DNA from: a virus
Length of the DNA: 23,940 bases
Virus record (IMG/VR): IMGVR_UViG_3300008120_000875
Coordinates: 1 to 23,940 of that record
Reading direction: 5' to 3' (one strand)
The translations under genes and the position numbers were made by a program. How positions within the stretch are numbered: position 1 is the first letter of the stretch; each line of letters opens with the position of its first letter. Below the pieces are notes generated by a model. That model saw nothing but the letters and a program-made list of their open reading frames with translations. It did no database searches and was not told the origin of the DNA. This document shows positions 6,714 to 23,940 of this stretch, piece after piece.

Positions 6714-7367
6714 ATGACCTTCATCGCGTACTACCGCGTCAGCACCGACCGCCAGGGAAAGTCTGGCCTTGGCCTCGAAGCCCAGCGTTCAGCAGTTCTG
6801 TCGCACATCGCCGGAGCGCCGCTGCTGGCCGAGTACACCGAGGTCGAGTCCGGTCGCAAGACCGACCGCCCTCAGCTGATCGCTGCACTCGCTGCAGCGC
6901 GTAAGGCGAAGGCCACGCTGATCATCGCCAAGCTCGACCGCTTGGCTCGCAATGTGCACTTCATCTCCGGCCTGCTGGAGTCCGGTGTGGCGTTCCGCTG
7001 CGCCGACATGCCCGAGGCTGATCGGACATGGCTGCAGATGAGCGCCGTATTCGGCGAGTGGGAAGCCCGCAAGATCGGGGAGCGCACCAGCGCGGCCCTA
7101 CAAGCCGCCAAAGCCCGCGGTGTGGTGTTGGGGTCGCCCAGCCCCGAGAAAGGCGCTGCAGCCGTTTCTGACGCCGCCCAGCGCTATGCTGCTACGCTGG
7201 CCCCGGTCATCGCCGAGATCCGCGCAGCCGGTGCTGTCACCCTGCGTGACATCGCAGCCCAGTTGCAGGCCCGCAGCGTCAAGACCGCCCGCGGTGGCCT
7301 GGCATGGTCAGCGCAGCAGGTCAGCAACCTGATCAACCGTCTCAACCAAGAGGAGATCGCAGCATGA
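6714..7367 (+). CDS. Small serine recombinase (resolvase/invertase family)
   Basis: The product has 217 residues. The N-terminal catalytic domain begins FIAYYRVSTDRQ with nucleophile S10 and R8. It continues with E44-SGRKTDRPQL and LIIAKLDRLARN (69-80) with the conserved DRLxR. A basic linker (ERTSAALQAAKARGV) leads to a short C-terminal DNA-binding region (VTLRDIAAQLQARSV, then WSAQQVSNLINRL). The size is that of resolvases and invertases, not large serine integrases. AGGAG about 8 nt before the ATG is a good ribosome site. It heads the rightward operon. It might resolve genome multimers, invert a segment or integrate the phage; no attachment site was identified. Confidence 0.92.
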   Translation: MTFIAYYRVSTDRQGKSGLGLEAQRSAVLSHIAGAPLLAEYTEVESGRKTDRPQLIAALAAARKAKATLIIAKLDRLARNVHFISGLLESGVAFRCADMPEADRTWLQMSAVFGEWEARKIGERTSAALQAAKARGVVLGSPSPEKGAAAVSDAAQRYAATLAPVIAEIRAAGAVTLRDIAAQLQARSVKTARGGLAWSAQQVSNLINRLNQEEIAA

Positions 7368-15518: not shown

Positions 15519-18506
15519 TCATTTGATGTAGTTGCCGACCCTGGCTCGACGCCGCTGCGCCGCTTCAGCCCGAGCCTCGATGCGTGGTCCGAATGTCGGA
15601 TGCGCGAACAACTCCCCTCGCGCCATCTCCGTGAACTGCGAATACACCGCCCGGATGTTGTTCTGCTGGACATCCTTTGGGTCATCGTAGAAACCAGGTG
15701 TTTTCGCCGCCTCAACGATTGCATCCTGAATGTTCAACGCCTTCGGCTTCCCGCCGCTCATCGTCGTGATCGACACACGCCCGAGCTGCTTCATCAGGTA
15801 ATCGTACTCGTCCACCTCGAGCTTGACGTTGACCCCGCCAACCGTCACATCCATGCCAGGCTTCTGAATCGACATGCCCAGCTGGATCATAATCTTGTCG
15901 GCCATCCGCTGCTTGGTGGCGCTGTACCGAATGCCGCTCATCCCGGCCAGCCAGGGATTCGCTGGATCGATGTCAGTGATGATCTCGCCGAGATAGTCGC
16001 GCTGGGCTGGCAGCGTCTCACTCAGCACCGGAGTCCGAGAGATCGAGCGATTGAGCGCCTCATAGAATCCTTTGAGTCCAGTCGGGACCAGCGGTGACTC
16101 GGCAGTCATGCGCCTGACCGGATCGTAAACTCGCTCGATGGTTGCCCTCGCGCTGCTGAAGATCCCGACCGGCGAACCCTCGACCGCGTAAGACGTTGCG
16201 CTGCCAGCGACTTGATTGAGCGCGTTCTTGAATGCCTGCTTCGGATTCGGGATCGTCGCGCTAAATGCACCAGCAATGCTGCTGACACCCTGCAGGAACG
16301 GTGACTGCCCGACATAACCGTACAGACCCCACACCGCACCGAGCAGCACCTCGCCTGCCAGATCCTGATCGTCCTCATACCGAGCATATTCGACCGCATC
16401 TGCGATCATTGCCATCGGCCCCGCAACCGGATCGATCCCGCGGAACGGGACGTACAGTTTGCCGTCCTTGCTGATGCTGGGATCAATCCCCATCGTCTTC
16501 AGGTATTCGACGAACTCTCCGTCCCACTCCTCTTTTTGGAAGACGAACGAATACGGTCGCCATCCGCTGTCAAGATAGACGCGCCGCAGGTTCTGGTCGC
16601 CTGGCCCGCCGCCGGTCATGCGACCGTCAGCAACAAGCGATCCAGCGCCCATCATGATCATCGTCCCCATGCCCCACTTCGCCATTGCCAGCTCGCGCTT
16701 TGCGCCGCCTGCAGCGAAGTCCTGTCGCCATTGCTTCGACATCGGAGCGAATGCCGAATGTTGCATCCCCTCAGACGCAACCCACACCGGAGTCTTGACG
16801 AACGGGAGGGTGATGCGACCGAGCAGGTTGTCCTGCGCCAACTCTTGAATCTTCGCCGCGCTGCCGGTCAGCTGCCGCGAGAACGTGACCATGTGGCCAA
16901 AGTCCTTCGCCAGCTCATCGATCTCAGCAGGTGGATCAGAGATTATCTCTGCCATCTTCTGAAGGCCCAGCATCTCTGCCTGATCCCGCGGCACACCGGC
17001 ATCCTCAGCGCTGCGAATCACTTGCCGCTGCGTCCGGTACGCTTGGGCATATAGCTCTGCACGGTAAGCCATCGTTTTGAACAACTCGTCCATTGCCATG
17101 ATCGGGCGACCGCCGAGCAGCGTCACAAAGTTGGCGTAAGCGTTGATACCCTTGACCAGACCCTCAGTTTCGATGCCGTAGTTCCGAGCGTCGAAGATGT
17201 GGTACTGGCCCTCGAGCTTCTGGCCCGCATCCGACAACACGCCAGCGCCCTCGCGCATCTCGCGGGTCGTCCCGGTTCGCAGCGCGGTGCCAGCCAGCGA
17301 CATCCCCTCGCGGAATGAATGAACCATCCCGGCGACCAGCGCACCAGCTTCACCTAGCTCGACCTCGCCCTGCATTCCGACCGAGCGTTTCGCCGTTCCG
17401 ATCGCCCCAGCCAGCGCCCTCGTTGCGACCGTGCTGGCCAGGAAGGTCGTCGAACTGGTGAGGTTCACGACATGCGTTCCGATGCCTGATAGCAGGCCGT
17501 TCTTCCAGGTGCGATCCCACAGGTCAGCGATCAGCCCGACCTTGCCGACCTTGTTGATCAGCCCCTCTCGCGCTGCCTCGGTTTCCAGCTGCACGAACTT
17601 CTCGACGAACACCTTCAGGTTCTGCGAGACATTCGGATCGGCCAGCATCTGCTGGATCTCGGCGCTGTTGGGTGCCGGGATCTTCACATCGCCGACCTGG
17701 TCGAGGAATCCCGCCGCCCGCGCCTCGGTCAGTTGAATGCGCCCCGCTGCGGTGGCCTGCGCTGCCCGCGTTCGCGCAGACAGATACGCATCGTTGACCG
17801 CGTTCTGCAGGTTGAGCTTGTAGAGCAGCTGCGCCTGCAGGTCCACATCGTCAGGGTTCAGGTACGCTCGACGCGCCAGGTTGTAGAACTCTCGGGTGTT
17901 CTGGTAGCTCGCCAGCCGCAGCCGCACGACATCGACCGGCAGATCACCGTATTGCTTTTTCAGCGCCTGCAGCTCGCCAATGATGTTGCCATCGACACCC
18001 TTCTTGACCGCCTTGCCGACCATCTCCTCGAACGTCATGCGCTCAAGTTCGATGCCGCTGGTCTTGGCCAATGACTCGACCGTCTGCTTGAAGTCAGCAG
18101 GCCCATCGATGCGGTTCAGGTTCATCAGCGTGTCAGGCGGTGTGCCTGCCGCTGGTGTCTCGGTGATGGTCAGCTCGATGTTCTCAAGCTGCTTCTGCGC
18201 TGCTTGCGGTGGCGCAGCGGTGGTGCCTGGCGGTGTCGGTGTCGGAAGCGCATCGGCAGCTTCCTGCGCCGCCTTCCTCGCAGCCACGCCTTCCTGATAG
18301 ACCTTCGCCCCGCCGGTCACCAGTCTGCGAAGACCGGCAACCTGCACCACATTGTCGTCAGCGGTGTGCGCTGGCTCGTACTGAGGGATCGGCTCGTCAG
18401 GCTCGGCGCTGCTGACGCGCTCCGGCAGAGCGCCATCAGTCTTCGCGCCCTCCGGCAGGATCTCGCTCAGTCGCTCTTCAAGAGGTGCTTGTGAGATTGC
18501 CATCAT
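15519..18506 (-). CDS. Large internal virion (ejection) protein with LPD38-like domain
   Basis: The product has 995 residues. The start ATG overlaps the stop of the preceding gene as ATGA; a second ATG follows directly. Residues 85-125 are Pro/Thr-rich. Membrane-compatible stretches lie at about 340-372 and 608-626. From about 565 onward the sequence reads LPFVKTPVWVASEG, AGGAKRELAMAKWGM, MTGGGPGDQNLRRVYLDSGW and RPYSFVF. This closely follows the LPD38-type domain that I know from phage polyvalent proteins. No lytic transglycosylase motif is seen. The position between nozzle and tail fibre genes is that of T7 gp15/gp16-type proteins ejected into the host. The domain call is by pattern and needs a profile search. 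Confidence 0.8.
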   Translation of the reverse strand: MMAISQAPLEERLSEILPEGAKTDGALPERVSSAEPDEPIPQYEPAHTADDNVVQVAGLRRLVTGGAKVYQEGVAARKAAQEAADALPTPTPPGTTAAPPQAAQKQLENIELTITETPAAGTPPDTLMNLNRIDGPADFKQTVESLAKTSGIELERMTFEEMVGKAVKKGVDGNIIGELQALKKQYGDLPVDVVRLRLASYQNTREFYNLARRAYLNPDDVDLQAQLLYKLNLQNAVNDAYLSARTRAAQATAAGRIQLTEARAAGFLDQVGDVKIPAPNSAEIQQMLADPNVSQNLKVFVEKFVQLETEAAREGLINKVGKVGLIADLWDRTWKNGLLSGIGTHVVNLTSSTTFLASTVATRALAGAIGTAKRSVGMQGEVELGEAGALVAGMVHSFREGMSLAGTALRTGTTREMREGAGVLSDAGQKLEGQYHIFDARNYGIETEGLVKGINAYANFVTLLGGRPIMAMDELFKTMAYRAELYAQAYRTQRQVIRSAEDAGVPRDQAEMLGLQKMAEIISDPPAEIDELAKDFGHMVTFSRQLTGSAAKIQELAQDNLLGRITLPFVKTPVWVASEGMQHSAFAPMSKQWRQDFAAGGAKRELAMAKWGMGTMIMMGAGSLVADGRMTGGGPGDQNLRRVYLDSGWRPYSFVFQKEEWDGEFVEYLKTMGIDPSISKDGKLYVPFRGIDPVAGPMAMIADAVEYARYEDDQDLAGEVLLGAVWGLYGYVGQSPFLQGVSSIAGAFSATIPNPKQAFKNALNQVAGSATSYAVEGSPVGIFSSARATIERVYDPVRRMTAESPLVPTGLKGFYEALNRSISRTPVLSETLPAQRDYLGEIITDIDPANPWLAGMSGIRYSATKQRMADKIMIQLGMSIQKPGMDVTVGGVNVKLEVDEYDYLMKQLGRVSITTMSGGKPKALNIQDAIVEAAKTPGFYDDPKDVQQNNIRAVYSQFTEMARGELFAHPTFGPRIEARAEAAQRRRARVGNYIK

Positions 18507-19822
18507 TCCACCTTGACGATCTTGATCTGATCTTCACCACCAGGGAAGACAACGATGTTGCGGGTGCCATCTCCTGCGCCTCGAGAACCTTGGTCTAGGT
18601 AGCGAACACCAGGAATGCCAGCATCTGACAGTATCTTGGCCCCATCTGGCTTCTTGGCATTGACAGCAGCAATCAAGTCGCCACCCATGTGATCCGGGTC
18701 AGTCAGTCCGTATTGTTTAGCCAATTGTTGGACCTCTTGCGATTGTTGGCTTATAAGAGCATCCCAATCCAGCATCTTGCCGATCATTTCGTCGGGAATG
18801 TCTACGGTGTAGAAATTACCTTTGGCTTTCGTAGGATTAAGAGCTTCAACAGAATCCGCAATCCCTTTATACATGTTTGCGTACTTTGATTCTCTTATTG
18901 CTTTTACTATTGACTCAGGACTACTTCCCATAATTAAATCTCTGACAACTAAATTAGCTTTTGAATAGAGCGCAGCTTGAAGCTGCCGGTCAACTTGACC
19001 GACATTTTTAAGAATTTCATCAGCAAGGTCTTGAGATCTCACCATGCCATTTGTTGTTTCATATTGGTTTGCGGATGTTGAGATTTTATATTGCCCAGCA
19101 ATTGCTGGATTTTCAGCAAAGTACAACCCATGCCCGTACGCTTGCGCTCCTTCGCCTGTGCCGATCTTCTCTGAACGGAACCGACCAAGCGGCGCCCCCT
19201 CTTCGGCAGGAAGCCTGTGCGGTGTGCCGTGATAGGCCATCAGGTCCATCGTCATGCCGGTGCGCCGCATGTAGCTGTCGAGCATCTCCCCGACTTTTGG
19301 CGCAGCGAACTTTGCGCCAGCCGCGGCAGTCTTCGCCGCAGCCTTCGCACCTTCAATCATCGTCTTGCCGCCGCCGCCCAGCTCGCCAATAAACTCTGGC
19401 ACCGCTGCCGCTTTGCGCCTGGCCTCGTCTGTCTCGCTCTCAGGAACCACCGGCCCGAGCGTCCGGTCGAGAAAGTCCCGCACATCCTCGGTCGTCGGGA
19501 ATAGCGTCTTGCCTTCCATGCCGCGCAGGAAAGCGTCTACCCGGCCTTCTCCGGCATTCGGCCTGATCGCCGCCGCTATCCCCTTACCGAGGCTGATCAG
19601 ATCGCCTGGCAATCCTATGGTTCCTTGTATGCCGCCCTTCAGTAGCGCAGCCGGAATGTCCATCGCCGCCTTGCCAAACTGCTTGGCTGTGATGTTGGTC
19701 GTGTCCTGCGGCAATGTCCCGACCAGCGCCTGCTGCGCCGCATCCTCAAGCGAGGTGCCAGGCTCGTCTGGATACGAAAAGCGCAGGTACTGATCGACGA
19801 TGCGCTGCTCGAGGTCTGTCAT
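18503..19822 (-). CDS. Virion-region protein with ADP-ribosyltransferase-like domain
   Basis: The product has 439 residues. Residues 50-90 form an Ala/Gly-rich, membrane-compatible segment (LLKGGIQGTIGLPGDLISLG), and 150-175 is an Ala/Lys-rich helix. From about 195 an ADP-ribosyltransferase-like domain begins: MAYHGTPHRL (H198), then IGTGEGAQAYGHGLYFAENP (Y234). FYTVDIPDEMIGKMLDWDAL follows, and the end reads GIPGVRYLDQGSRGAG and RNIVVFPGG. This is the pattern of the ART-PolyVal-like families. The third catalytic residue cannot be assigned safely. The middle, about 18650-19100, is clearly AT-rich. Its place among ejection proteins suggests delivery into the host cell, where it might modify a host protein; that is inference. 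Confidence 0.75.
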   Translation of the reverse strand: MTDLEQRIVDQYLRFSYPDEPGTSLEDAAQQALVGTLPQDTTNITAKQFGKAAMDIPAALLKGGIQGTIGLPGDLISLGKGIAAAIRPNAGEGRVDAFLRGMEGKTLFPTTEDVRDFLDRTLGPVVPESETDEARRKAAAVPEFIGELGGGGKTMIEGAKAAAKTAAAGAKFAAPKVGEMLDSYMRRTGMTMDLMAYHGTPHRLPAEEGAPLGRFRSEKIGTGEGAQAYGHGLYFAENPAIAGQYKISTSANQYETTNGMVRSQDLADEILKNVGQVDRQLQAALYSKANLVVRDLIMGSSPESIVKAIRESKYANMYKGIADSVEALNPTKAKGNFYTVDIPDEMIGKMLDWDALISQQSQEVQQLAKQYGLTDPDHMGGDLIAAVNAKKPDGAKILSDAGIPGVRYLDQGSRGAGDGTRNIVVFPGGEDQIKIVKVE

Positions 19823-21555
19823 CGTGATGCCCCTTGCAGGATTCGCTGCTGCTGCCGCAGCGCGGTGATGTCATCTTGCCGCAGCCGCGGATAGCGCAGC
19901 AGCAGATCATCGAGGTTTGTGGTCGCATCGATCTTCACGGTTTCGGCCAGCTTGTTCTCTTTCACCAAGTCAACAACGATTGCATTTAGTCTCGTCAGCG
20001 CTTGTGTCTTTTGCAGGTCAGCCCGCTCTGTTGTGTTGTAAGCGTCAATCGATTGCTGCGCCAGATCGCGGAACGGGACAGCCTGGCCCTCGTTCGTTCT
20101 GCGGAAGTCTGTGACCAGTTGCTGATAGCGAGCGGTTATAGCTTCTGCTTTGGCAATCTGCGCTTCGTTGTCTTTCGTGGCGAAGACAGACCGAACATCA
20201 GGAACGCCAGCGGTCGCATTGATCAGGCGTTGTGCAGCAGACGCATCGGGGTTTTCGTTCTCACGCATCCGCTGGTAGAGCCTGTTGATCTGGTCGCCAT
20301 TCATTCCCGCTCGCGTTGTCAGCGGAAGCAACTCGTTCCAACCGCGGATAAACCCGTTGTCGATCTGATACTGAATCGCCGTGAACGTCAGCATGTCGCC
20401 GGGTGGCTGAGTCGGGTTCAGCAGGCGCTCGGTCTGCTCAATGGACATCACCCGCAGGTTGACCAACTGGTCAGCAATCGCAGACTTCACCGATGGTAGG
20501 GTATTCGGTCGATAGTATTGTGCGATCAGGTCGCTGGCCTGCAGCTCCCTGTTGCGCTTGTCGAGCGCATCATCCTGATCGAGCTTAGTGATCCTCGCGG
20601 AAATCTCAGCCCGAAAGTTCTTGATGACCTCTTCGCCAGCCTTCGGGTCTTGCGCCACCATCGACCGCAGCACCTCGTTGAAGCGCTCGTCCGGTAGGAA
20701 CTGGCCATTGCGTATGCCATTGATCACCGCCAGCGAATTCGCTGCAGCAAAGTCGCTGGTCATCAGTTTGCGGGACAGCACACCCACTTGAGCATCGACC
20801 GCTTCCTTGCGGATCTTCGCCGCATACTCGCGCTGCATCGTTGCATCGCCCAGCGCAATCGCAGCGCGGTTGATGTTCTGTTCGTGCATCGCAATGAGCT
20901 GGGTCGATTGCTCGGGGTTTTGCTCAATCGTGTCCTGCAGCACTCGAGCGACATCATTGAAGTACACATCGAACTTGATGCGGTTCCGCTCCCGGTCTTG
21001 CCGGATCTCAGTCTCGAGCGCTTTCCTGACAATCGTGTTGCCCGACGCCGCCATGCTCGCGTTGAACTTCATCGCGGCCTGCGGGTCCAACTTGGCAAGC
21101 GATGCTGTCAGCCCGCTGTTCATCTCGCGCAGCTTCAGGATCACCTGCTCGGAACTCATGCGACCGGCTTCAATGTCGGGCAGCAACCGTGACATCGTGT
21201 TGATGCCCTCGGCCTCGAAATGACTCGCCAGTTGCAGACTGCGAGCCTTCCTGAAAGCGTCATCGAAGATCCGGCCTGTCGGCTTTGTGATCGCCCCGTC
21301 TCTGGCCAGCGCGATCTCTTCGTCGGTCAGCGGGTTCTCGGCTGCGTACCGGAATCCCTCCTGCTCGGCCATCTGACCGGCTTCCTTGAAGAGCGACTCG
21401 CTCATGCGCTGGATCAACTGCGCCATGCGGCCCTGCTCCTGCGCCGCAACCTGGAACCCAATTGGCTGCACGGTCGGCATCTGCGCCTGAACCATCGGCA
21501 CACCGCCAGGTCGCGCAAGTTGCATCTGCCCTGATTCGATTCGCGTTGCCATCAT
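19819..21555 (-). CDS. Internal virion protein, hypothetical
   Basis: The product has 578 residues, starting MMATRIESGQMQLARPGGVP. The N-terminal ~60 residues are Gln/Met/Pro-rich. The rest is almost wholly alpha-helical, with many short charged helices (YNTTERADLQKTQALTRLNA, RLRQDDITALRQQQRILQ). There is no enzyme motif that I recognise. Its length, helical nature and position after the gp14-like gene match the middle internal core protein of T7-like phages (gp15 position). Both ends overlap neighbours as ATGA. Confidence 0.75.
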   Translation of the reverse strand: MMATRIESGQMQLARPGGVPMVQAQMPTVQPIGFQVAAQEQGRMAQLIQRMSESLFKEAGQMAEQEGFRYAAENPLTDEEIALARDGAITKPTGRIFDDAFRKARSLQLASHFEAEGINTMSRLLPDIEAGRMSSEQVILKLREMNSGLTASLAKLDPQAAMKFNASMAASGNTIVRKALETEIRQDRERNRIKFDVYFNDVARVLQDTIEQNPEQSTQLIAMHEQNINRAAIALGDATMQREYAAKIRKEAVDAQVGVLSRKLMTSDFAAANSLAVINGIRNGQFLPDERFNEVLRSMVAQDPKAGEEVIKNFRAEISARITKLDQDDALDKRNRELQASDLIAQYYRPNTLPSVKSAIADQLVNLRVMSIEQTERLLNPTQPPGDMLTFTAIQYQIDNGFIRGWNELLPLTTRAGMNGDQINRLYQRMRENENPDASAAQRLINATAGVPDVRSVFATKDNEAQIAKAEAITARYQQLVTDFRRTNEGQAVPFRDLAQQSIDAYNTTERADLQKTQALTRLNAIVVDLVKENKLAETVKIDATTNLDDLLLRYPRLRQDDITALRQQQRILQGASR

Positions 21556-22088
21556 GTCGTCCTGTAAAGCTGCAGCGCCGCGCCAGCCAACTGCACATCA
21601 GCCATCAGGCCACCATAGCGCCGGGTCGTCGCCGCTGCTGCCTCGAGTCCACCAGCCTGACGTTGCGCCGCGAACGTGCTGAGATAATTCTGGAACTCGG
21701 TACTCTGCAGCATGGCCGTTGCATCCTCGAATCCGAGAACCTGCGCCGTCAGCGCGTTGAGGTCAGCGATGCCGACATCCCGCATCGTTGCCCCGACATT
21801 CTCGCCCTGCAGCGCCAGCATCGAACCCTCGCCGAATGCCACACCGTTCGCCGCGGCCCTGGCCCTGATCGCCGCATTGCTGCGCCGCAAGTTCTTCAGC
21901 AGCGTGTTGCCAGCGATCTTGTAATTCAGCGCCTCCAGATAGGCTGTCTGCTGGTTGATCGCCGCAGCCTTGCCCATCTGGTTCGCGGCATAAGCATTCG
22001 CAAACGCAGCGCCAGCCACCATTGCAGATGCAGCAGGCATCGCCATGCCACCACCGACTGCGCTTGGTGATCCTTCAACGATGTCCAT
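21552..22088 (-). CDS. Internal virion protein, T7 gp14-like position
   Basis: The product has 178 residues from ATG 22088-22086, two bases before the stop of the nozzle frame and with GGGACG upstream; a start 24 nt earlier is possible. An Ala/Gly-rich hydrophobic segment, AMPAASAMVAGAAFANAYAA, lies at about 16-35, followed by helices with NTLLKNLRRSNAAIRARAAA and NGVAFGEGSMLALQGENVG. This pattern is typical of the smallest internal core protein of T7-like phages (gp14), which inserts in the outer membrane on infection. The ID rests on pattern and gene order. Confidence 0.7.
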   Translation of the reverse strand: MDIVEGSPSAVGGGMAMPAASAMVAGAAFANAYAANQMGKAAAINQQTAYLEALNYKIAGNTLLKNLRRSNAAIRARAAANGVAFGEGSMLALQGENVGATMRDVGIADLNALTAQVLGFEDATAMLQSTEFQNYLSTFAAQRQAGGLEAAAATTRRYGGLMADVQLAGAALQLYRTT

Positions 22089-22089
22089 G

Positions 22090-23130
22090 TTACGTCCCTG
22101 AGTAGACCGCAACGCGGTAGTCGAGTCCGAGCAGCGTCAGCTTCAGCGGCAGGGACTGCTCAATCTCAATGGCCTGCTCCCTGCTGTCCCCCAGCACTCC
22201 GTTGACGCGCTTGATGCCGGTGAATGTCGGGACCGGCAGATCCAGCAGCGGGTTGTCCAACAGCCTGAACTGGATCACCTGGTCATTCAGGATCAACTCT
22301 TGCGAGTCCTTGACCACCGCGCTGATCTCGACCACCCGCTTCTTCATCGACAGCCTGCTGCCAGTCTGCAGCGCCAGCTCAACCGGCATCGTCTTCGCGT
22401 AGATCGTGATCGGCAGTCCGACCTCGTAGCTCGTCGTGCTGGCCCGGTCGAACGTGACCGACCCGCCGCCGCTCACCGTCTCATTGCTCTGCGGCACACC
22501 ATCGCAGATCACGTTGAGCGACTTACCGATGTGCGGCAGGCTCGATGCACTCGCTGCAGCCCCGCCGGTAAACGCGCAGTCGGTGAACAGGCTATCGCTA
22601 AACATCTCGACGAACCAGCGATCAACCGAGTTGAAGGTTCGCTTCGTCACCACATAGATCGTGCTGACATCAACACCGACATCGACGAACCGACCGTCTG
22701 TCGTGAACTCGCTCGGGCTGGTGATCTGCTGGGACCGCATCACGCTGTAGACCGCCAGGCTCCCGTCCGAGTCATTCGTCAGCATCAGCAGGTCGCCCTC
22801 ATCCGTCGAGGTGGCCTTCCGCAGCGCGATCCGCTTGGGTGTCTTCAGCAGGTGACCGGACAGCAGGCTGATCCGCTCGGTGATGTAGGTCAGCTGCGAG
22901 TCGCTGAATCGGAACTCGTTGAGCGACTTGCCGAGCCGCTGCACATAGACCGACCCGGACTCAAGCGGTTGCACCCGCGTACCGGCCTCGATGCCGTTCC
23001 TGCTCACGTTCTTGAACGTGAACGTCAGCGGTGTGACCGGATCGGTTCCCTGCTGCGGAATGTAGAACTCGCCGCCGCTCGTGAATACCTGCAGGTCGCG
23101 CCCGCTGATGATGTCGGTGATGACGTTCAA
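22090..23130 (-). CDS. Tail nozzle (tubular protein B) C-terminal part
   Basis: The product has 346 residues. The only upstream start is TTG 23130-23128, overlapping the previous stop. The open frame extends back to DTNDLNVITDI just before a TGA at 23145-23143. GRDLQVFTSGGEFYIPQ is the segment that in T7 gp12-type nozzles follows ...D-Q-N-A-I..., and later parts such as SVYVQRLGKSLNEF also fit. It therefore appears to be the C-terminal half of a nozzle protein whose N-terminal half is the next gene. The linking region seems to be missing (see findings). Whether a working protein is made is unclear. Confidence 0.75.
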   Translation of the reverse strand: MNVITDIISGRDLQVFTSGGEFYIPQQGTDPVTPLTFTFKNVSRNGIEAGTRVQPLESGSVYVQRLGKSLNEFRFSDSQLTYITERISLLSGHLLKTPKRIALRKATSTDEGDLLMLTNDSDGSLAVYSVMRSQQITSPSEFTTDGRFVDVGVDVSTIYVVTKRTFNSVDRWFVEMFSDSLFTDCAFTGGAAASASSLPHIGKSLNVICDGVPQSNETVSGGGSVTFDRASTTSYEVGLPITIYAKTMPVELALQTGSRLSMKKRVVEISAVVKDSQELILNDQVIQFRLLDNPLLDLPVPTFTGIKRVNGVLGDSREQAIEIEQSLPLKLTLLGLDYRVAVYSGT

Positions 23131-23940
23131 ATCATTGGTGTCTCAATCTCCCAACTGCCAGCAGCGATCACGCTGGTCGAGAAGAAGGGATATTCCACAA
23201 TCGCATTCACCACCGTCGAGCTGACGTACTGCACGATCTTCGCTCGGCCCTGCGGTGATACGTTGACGTACTGATTGACCGACAACGATGACCAGGTGGT
23301 GACCTCATAGGTCGATGTGCCGTTGGGTGCAGTCGCCCATGCAGGCGATACCGTTGCAACCTTCGTCGATCCCACATAGTCGCTGATCAGGCGCACTTGG
23401 CCAGATCCCGTTCCTCCGGTGATCGTGACATACATGCCCGAATAGATGTCGTCTGTCGCGCTGGATGTCGTCTTGAGCGTGATCGTTGTGCTTGATCCGG
23501 CCTGCGCCGTGCCGCTGTCGTGATGCGTTGTCGATGCGGTCAGAGTTACATTCCCGCTGACCGCCGAGGGTGTCAGCGTAGAGCCGGTTTGCGTGAATGT
23601 CTGCAGCGTGTAAGCGTATTTGGTGATGCTGTCGAAGGTGATCGTGCTGGCGGTCCATGTCGCATCGGTCGCGCCGCGCACAATCCGCACAGGCTGCAGA
23701 TCCGGGTGGACAACGATCAGCGTGTCAGCGCTCTGCGTCCAGCAGAGATTCGCCAGCAGCGATGATCCGATTGTCGTCGTCAGGTAATCGTTGCCGCTGC
23801 CGTTGATGTTGGTCACCACCGCGCCATTCTTGATGACGTACATGCGGTTATGCGTGAAGCAGAGCATGTAGCTGTCTGCCACGCTGAACTGGAACGGCAC
23901 CAAGCGCACACCGTTCCCGGCAGACTCGGTGCCGGTGTAC
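23127..23940 (-). CDS. Tail nozzle (tubular protein B) N-terminal part, 5' end off the right edge
   Basis: The frame is open to the right edge, where it reads YTGTESAGNGVRLVPFQFSV. VRLVPFQFS followed by YMLCFTHNRMYVIKNGA matches the start of T7-like nozzle proteins (VRLIPFQFS...Y). A beta-rich section follows, with LCWTQSADTLIVVHPDLQPV and a Thr/Ser-rich part (about 100-200). The frame ends SWEIETPMI at TGA 23129-23127. In relatives the residues after SWE(L/I)E continue with a GYPR...FHE(G/D)RL propeller blade, absent here. The true start lies outside the window. Confidence 0.75.
   Translation of the reverse strand, partial: YTGTESAGNGVRLVPFQFSVADSYMLCFTHNRMYVIKNGAVVTNINGSGNDYLTTTIGSSLLANLCWTQSADTLIVVHPDLQPVRIVRGATDATWTASTITFDSITKYAYTLQTFTQTGSTLTPSAVSGNVTLTASTTHHDSGTAQAGSSTTITLKTTSSATDDIYSGMYVTITGGTGSGQVRLISDYVGSTKVATVSPAWATAPNGTSTYEVTTWSSLSVNQYVNVSPQGRAKIVQYVSSTVVNAIVEYPFFSTSVIAAGSWEIETPMI

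What the first reader, a model, noticed from the sequence alone, without database searches (positions are those of the whole stretch)
18503..19822. ADP-ribosyltransferase-like protein encoded among phage ejection proteins
Seen: YHGTPH, GTGEGAQAYGHGLYFAE and GIPGVRYLDQGSR motifs in a 439-aa protein whose gene lies between internal virion protein genes with ATGA overlaps. Known: such ART domains occur in phage polyvalent proteins, and T4 injects Alt to modify host RNA polymerase. Inference: this T7-like phage packages an ART and injects it to alter a host target, here as a separate virion gene rather than part of a giant polyvalent protein. The N-terminal Ala/Gly-rich segment could serve in packaging or membrane passage.
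Basis: partly seen in the sequence, partly recalled or inferred. Interest (0 to 1): 0.7.

Follow-up and report, generated by a model that had tools for sequence, protein, structure and literature searches.

The report
Swappable effector slot in phage ejectosome
The gene encodes an ADP-ribosyltransferase-type enzyme that a short-tailed phage probably packs and injects at infection, and the same gene position in relatives carries different, swapped enzymes behind a shared N-terminal tag, like an exchangeable payload.

Summary
Observation confirmed: 19822..18503 on the MINUS strand encodes 439 aa, with ATGA overlaps to a gp15-like gene upstream and a gp16-like (internal virion protein D) gene downstream. 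The C-terminal 247 residues form an ART fold. The catalytic signature is H198-Y234-D410 (H-Y-D, invariant in 41-42 homologues), not H-Y-E.

The larger finding is the position. In about 100 related loci this slot always lies directly between the gp15-like and gp16-like genes. Of 72 non-redundant slot proteins, 66 carry one of ten C-terminal cargo clusters (window-type ART, canonical ART-PolyVal, a ParB-C-terminal-like ART candidate, PBECR5 nuclease, DUF7178, LPD-like and others); six carry none. The ~22-residue N-terminal leader is shared by nearly all. It follows the neighbouring ejection genes (Mantel r 0.80/0.83), not the cargo (partial r 0.008), and phages with near-identical ejection genes carry different cargo.

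Best reading: a polymorphic, probably ejected effector; an address leader plus an interchangeable payload borrowed from polyvalent proteins. This is a podophage counterpart of MuF toxins. Virion presence, injection, activity and target are inferred, not shown. 'T7-like' is not supported beyond tail and ejection gene order.

The parts
18503..19822 (-). slot gene: 439-aa protein, leader + module A + H-Y-D ART
   Evidence: homologues; dN/dS
19757..19822 (-). leader, residues 1-22 (MTDLEQRIVDQYLRFSYPDEPG); putative ejectosome address, predicted helix 3-16
   Evidence: motif in 68/72 slot proteins against 2/551 control ORF starts; E 68/72, P 70/72; covaries with gp15/gp16; helix, low confidence
19334..19741 (-). 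module type A, about residues 28-163; swapped for type B, C or D in relatives; occurs without cargo in L003 and in phage MEP301 gp25
   Evidence: 97% DNA identity to L003
19263..19328 (-). junction box J2 (AAAGAKFAAPKVGEMLDSYMRR), kept between unlike modules and cargos
   Evidence: 92-93% DNA blocks in L008, L013, L015
18506..19246 (-). ART domain, residues 193-439
   Evidence: model pLDDT mostly 82-97 over 193-439; VIA-align Z 8-9.9 to ART structures; Foldseek BFVD to ART-PolyVal proteins down to 4.8e-16
19229..19231 (-). H198 codon (predicted NAD-binding His, strand 1)
   Evidence: invariant 42/42
19121..19123 (-). Y234 codon (predicted NAD-stacking Tyr, strand 2)
   Evidence: invariant 42/42
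18593..18595 (-). D410 codon (predicted catalytic acidic residue)
   Evidence: invariant 41/41; H-Y-D definition in PMC5512222
18450..18507 (-). junction box J3 at the start of the gp16-like gene, kept although flanks diverge
   Evidence: 96.6% over 58 nt to L003 and L015, whose gp16 is 27% identical
19819..21555 (-). gp15-like (internal virion protein C position) gene, P0002
   Evidence: position and conserved pairing with the slot; no family hit in PHROGs
15519..18506 (-). gp16-like (internal virion protein D) gene, P0003
   Evidence: PHROG 6651 1e-19; annotated internal virion protein D homologues
21552..22112 (-). probable gp14-like (internal virion protein B) gene, P0005
   Evidence: position only; conserved in relatives

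Best explanation
The gene encodes one form of a polymorphic, virion-ejected effector. An N-terminal leader (~22 aa, helix then [FY]P) probably docks the protein to the gp15/gp16-like core during assembly. A short middle module may be structural; the C-terminal domain is an interchangeable payload. In this phage the payload is an H-Y-D ADP-ribosyltransferase that most likely enters the host with the ejection proteins and ADP-ribosylates a host macromolecule early in infection. Payloads are exchanged by recombination at short conserved junction boxes. Shown by computation: ART fold and invariant triad; fixed slot position; shared leader; exchange of modules and payloads on near-identical backbones. 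Inferred: packaging, ejection, enzymatic activity, target, and leader function.
For: ART fold: confident model of 193-439. The top 50 VIA-align rows are ARTs (diphtheria toxin Z 8.9, tankyrase 8.7, cholix 8.5). The top row (Z 9.9) is 9k3a_B, a protein of the cyanophage A4 pre-ejectosome, whose YHGT...GSGTYFSKS stretch at about residue 1424 lies inside the matched range. BFVD matches named ART-PolyVal. Triad invariant. Slot: directly between gp15-like and gp16-like genes in 104 loci. Cargo: 72 non-redundant proteins in ten clusters plus six cargo-free. Pfam, above cut-off: ART-PolyVal in five (9.6e-14 to 9.3e-23), PBECR5 6e-23, DUF7178 to 1e-26. Exchange: 57 of 85 close-backbone pairs differ in cargo, for example L218/L212 with gp15 0.99 and gp16 1.0; DNA mosaic with sharp edges. 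Leader: r 0.80/0.83 with gp15/gp16, 0.008 with cargo after control; 68/72 against 2/551 control starts. The same domain kinds sit inside giant gp16-position proteins of podophages DC33 and ctQRb9.
Against: No proteomics, structure or assay exists for these uncultured phages. The leader adjoins the gp15 gene, so its covariation with gp15 may partly be linkage; the leader motif was also defined on the same set it was tested on. The Pfam ART-PolyVal model does not detect the window protein. Foldseek against PDB alone was not significant (best E 0.59). Residues 1-190 are modelled with low confidence.
Confidence: 0.68

Rival explanations
1. The slot protein is primarily a structural ejectosome component. 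The C-terminal domains are decorations that stay in the conduit or periplasm and need not be active enzymes.
For: Cargo-free forms of 145-192 aa exist on close backbones (L131-L134 against L135, L141-L144, L003), so the N-part has a use of its own. In cyanophage A4 an ART-like domain lies in a pre-ejectosome protein.
Against: Catalytic triad invariant over 41-42 sequences. Cargo types include enzymes of conflict systems (ART, PBECR nuclease), and exchange among unlike domains fits payload better than structure.
Confidence: 0.15
2. The gene is an accessory (moron-type) late gene: the ART acts in the producing cell, for example as superinfection exclusion or host takeover, and is not injected.
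For: Related ARTs also occur outside the slot, for example between portal and scaffold genes in phiGT1 and elsewhere (L004-L010).
Against: Fixed place in every locus with both flanks, translational overlap with both ejection genes, shared leader that follows gp15/gp16, and presence of cargo-free forms.
Confidence: 0.1
3. Variation in the slot is ordinary phage mosaicism with no delivery logic; the leader is conserved only because it adjoins the gp15 gene.
For: The leader adjoins gp15, ejection proteins are known to be mosaic (PMC8954989), and short junction boxes favour recombination.
Against: Only four bases overlap gp15, so coding overlap cannot conserve 22 residues. The leader keeps E in 68/72 and P in 70/72 across divergent gp15. 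Where identified, the cargo consists of polyvalent-type domains, not random genes.
Confidence: 0.07

Closest known systems
Phage polyvalent proteins with ART domains (Tox-ART-HYD2; Pfam ART-PolyVal), PMC5512222
   Same: H-Y-D ART; same pool of domains (ART, PBECR, LPD-like); encoded among virion genes; proposed to be injected
   Different: One payload per small protein with a shared leader in a fixed slot, not many domains in one giant polypeptide; the window ART is below the Pfam cut-off
MuF polymorphic toxins of temperate phages, PMC5576092
   Same: Constant N-terminal part tied to virion assembly, variable toxic C-terminal part, exchange between relatives
   Different: No MuF domain; MuF is mostly in siphophages and a head component; here a short leader tied to the podophage ejection genes; no immunity gene was looked for
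T4 Alt
   Same: Head-packaged ART injected at infection (known for Alt, inferred here)
   Different: Alt is R-S-E class; the window protein is H-Y-D and in a podophage ejection operon
Cyanophage A4 (Anabaena phage A-4L) gp27, PDB 9K3A chain B
   Same: gp16-position ejection protein with an ART-like domain inside a solved pre-ejectosome
   Different: ART is fused into a 1717-aa protein; here it is a separate small protein

Membership tests
ADP-ribosyltransferase superfamily | ART fold | tested here: met
Tox-ART-HYD2 (polyvalent-type ART) | His strand 1, Tyr strand 2, Asp strand 5 | tested here: met
   H198, Y234 in 42/42 and D410 in 41/41; residues lie at strands 194-200, 233-236 and just after 405-409; strand numbering itself not checked in the model
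Pfam PF18760 ART-PolyVal | score over the curated cut-off | tested here: not met
   no match for P0001; homologue P0016 30.0 against 31.2 bits; P0014 E 0.13; so described as a relative, not filed as a member
T4 Alt/VIP2 ARTs | R-S-E active site | tested here: not met
   H-Y-D instead
Active ADP-ribosyltransferase | NAD+-dependent transfer | not testable with these tools
   needs purified protein
Polyvalent protein | two or more unlike effector domains in one polypeptide | tested here: not met
   one recognisable domain in 439 aa; N-part weakly modelled
MuF polymorphic toxin | N-terminal MuF domain | tested here: not met
   no MuF hit in Pfam or PHROGs
MuF polymorphic toxin | constant N-terminus, variable C-terminal effector | tested here: met
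Ejected virion protein | present in virion and delivered to the host | not testable with these tools
   genomic context only
T7-like (Autographiviridae) phage | T7-type RNA polymerase gene | tested here: inconclusive
   none in the window or seven related contigs; positive controls found; contigs may be incomplete

The most novel reading that the evidence does not exclude
A widespread clade of uncultured podophages has a dedicated payload slot in its ejectosome operon. A ~22-residue leader acts as a transferable address tag that loads any of ten or more unlike effector domains into the capsid for injection, with payloads exchanged at conserved junction boxes.
Probability: 0.5. Interest if true: 0.82.

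Novelty: new variant of a known kind. Interest (0 to 1): 0.64.

Why it matters
It would extend the polymorphic-toxin principle (constant delivery part, variable effector) to the podophage ejection machinery, where what enters the host besides DNA and conduit proteins is poorly known. The leader offers a directly testable packaging signal, and the slot is a place to mine for early-acting host-takeover or counter-defence proteins, several of them (DUF7178 types, two clusters without any family hit) of unknown activity. No paper describing such a slot was found in the library searched, though that library is incomplete.

Tried and rejected
Pfam and PHROGs on the window protein gave only weak chance-like hits (PhiKZ_gp85 0.0029, below cut-off), rejected. 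PDB sequence searches with the protein and with the 43-row profile found nothing relevant. Foldseek against PDB alone was not significant; the ART fold rests on the VIA second look and BFVD. No nucleotide match of the window in the phage collection. N-module B or gp16 relatives in 84,980 prokaryote genomes: none confirmed, so no host and no prophage found. MEP301 gp25 against the type B profile: no similarity; against type A: 30%, E 1e-4, accepted as a weak relative; it does not match the leader pattern. Transmembrane role of the N-part: no segment hydrophobic enough. The L013 cargo as a second ART class: VIA rows are mostly ARTs but Z is at most 4.8, so only suggestive. The A4 pre-ejectosome paper is not held.

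Full report
What is there. The ORF is on the minus strand, 19822 to 18503, 439 aa. It overlaps by ATGA the end of P0002 (21555..19819) and the start of P0003 (18506..15519). P0003 matches PHROG 6651, an internal virion protein (1e-19), and proteins annotated internal virion protein D in cultured phages. Upstream lie a probable gp14-like gene and a tail tube B gene. The window is a 23,940-base IMG/VR record.

Is it an ART. Pfam, PHROGs and PDB sequence searches do not name the domain. Its homologues do: phiGT1 gp5 (32% identical) scores 30.0 bits against ART-PolyVal, just under the cut-off. With 43 sequences AlphaFold2 models residues 193-439 mostly at pLDDT 82-97; the first 190 residues are poorly defined helices. 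VIA-align gives ART structures throughout its top rows, Z 7.7-8.9 for diphtheria toxin, tankyrases, cholix and ParT. The best row (Z 9.9, 162 residues) is chain B of the cyanophage A4 pre-ejectosome, 9K3A. That chain is Anabaena phage A-4L gp27, which carries YHGTR...GVGEWGSGTYFSKS at about residue 1424, inside the matched range 954-1602. So a gp16-position ejection protein with an ART-like domain has already been seen inside a virion. Foldseek on predicted viral structures matches proteins named ART-PolyVal-like and large polyvalent proteins, E down to 4.8e-16 for a named one. Foldseek against PDB alone was not significant.

Active site. H198 and Y234 are invariant in 42 of 42, D410 in 41 of 41 sequences with a letter there. 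This is the H-Y-D pattern that PMC5512222 gives for polyvalent-protein ARTs, not H-Y-E and not the R-S-E of T4 Alt. The domain is under purifying selection (dN/dS 0.08 to L002). Activity itself is not shown.

The slot. Using gp15-, gp16- and N-module-based searches, loci with both flanks have one gene directly between gp15-like and gp16-like: 104 loci. The slot proteins range from 145 to 971 aa. After removing near-duplicates, 72 remain. Their C-terminal parts fall into ten clusters: DUF7178 (15), a large DUF7178-related group (14), window-type ART (11), L040-type with PHROG 7348 (5), L186-type (5), canonical ART-PolyVal (5), L015-type (5), L135-type (4), PBECR5 (1) and a ParB-C-terminal-like domain (1); six have no cargo. 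Some clusters may be distant relatives of each other (two are DUF7178-related, two are ARTs). The ParB-C-terminal-like cargo has invariant R, GDWVT and E and a weak ART-like fold (Z up to 4.8). It also occurs inside giant polyvalent proteins. The L015-type domain and ART-PolyVal occur together inside 3,125-3,209 aa proteins at the gp16 position of Limnohabitans phage DC33 and podophage ctQRb9. So the same domain pool is used fused in some podophages and split into a slot here.

Exchange. The window and L008 are 96% identical through gp15 and the first 27 codons of the slot, differ in the middle module, then match again from the J2 box into the ART. The window and L003 share the middle module at 97% although gp15 and gp16 are diverged. 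A 58-nt box at the gp16 start is kept between window, L003 and L015. Among 85 pairs with closely related gp15 and gp16, 57 have different cargo. L131-L134 have no cargo where L135 and L137 carry an 803-aa slot protein. The recombination mechanism is inference.

The leader. The first ~22 residues are shared by nearly all slot proteins: E in 68 of 72, [FY] in 70, P in 70. The pattern occurs in 68 of 72 slot proteins and 2 of 551 other ORF starts from the same loci; the pattern was derived from the same set, so this overstates the contrast. Leader similarity follows gp15 (r 0.80) and gp16 (r 0.83), and not cargo once gp15 is controlled (r 0.008, p 0.37). Linkage to gp15 could produce part of this; four overlapping bases cannot conserve 22 residues. 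The best reading is a docking or packaging tag.

What is inferred. Packaging, ejection, cytoplasmic entry, activity and target are not shown. I put the ART fold at about 0.95, activity 0.8, virion presence 0.75, and delivery into the host cell 0.65.

Known relatives. Polyvalent proteins (PMC5512222) supply the domains; MuF toxins (PMC5576092) supply the constant/variable logic, mostly in siphophages. PMC9503650 states that about 44% of phage ARTs lie in contexts suggesting packaging, so a packaged ART alone is not new. The polymorphic slot with a shared leader in podophage ejection operons is what I could not find described, within an incomplete library.

Phage type. No T7-type RNA polymerase was found in the window or seven related contigs, while two Autographiviridae controls were positive. 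A serine recombinase is present in six of eight. 'T7-like' fits only the tail and ejection gene order.

Noticed in passing
window 22090-23939 (-): The tail tube B gene is split by a frame change with about 195 nt missing compared with the intact 840-codon ORF of L001; may be a deletion or an assembly fault.
   Followed up: partly
window 6723-7124 (+): Serine recombinase (PF00239, 2.2e-27), found in 6 of 8 related contigs, yet no relatives found in prokaryote genomes, so whether these phages are temperate is open.
   Followed up: partly
L012 4918-6081: Sulfitobacter phage phiGT1 has a homologous ART gene between portal and scaffold genes, a second virion-type context for the same domain.
   Followed up: partly
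L127 20116-25269 (-): Anabaena phage A-4L gp27, annotated only as tail protein, is the solved pre-ejectosome chain 9K3A_B and carries an ART-like motif that Pfam does not name.
   Followed up: partly
L004-L007, L009: Window-type ART genes outside the slot, each followed by a gene that looks like a 2-oxoglutarate oxygenase (recognised by eye, not tested).
   Followed up: no
L025, L027-L034 slot proteins: Two different cargo types end in the same short tail (GxAPQxGAQ), perhaps another junction or a C-terminal signal.
   Followed up: no
L186, L135 and their clusters: Two slot cargo clusters of 740-803 aa without any Pfam hit (PHROGs also empty for those tested): candidate unknown effectors.
   Followed up: no
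L088, L094 (slot-like ART proteins of 1164-1202 aa): ART followed by a further ~700 aa in one protein, a possible intermediate between slot proteins and polyvalent proteins.
   Followed up: no
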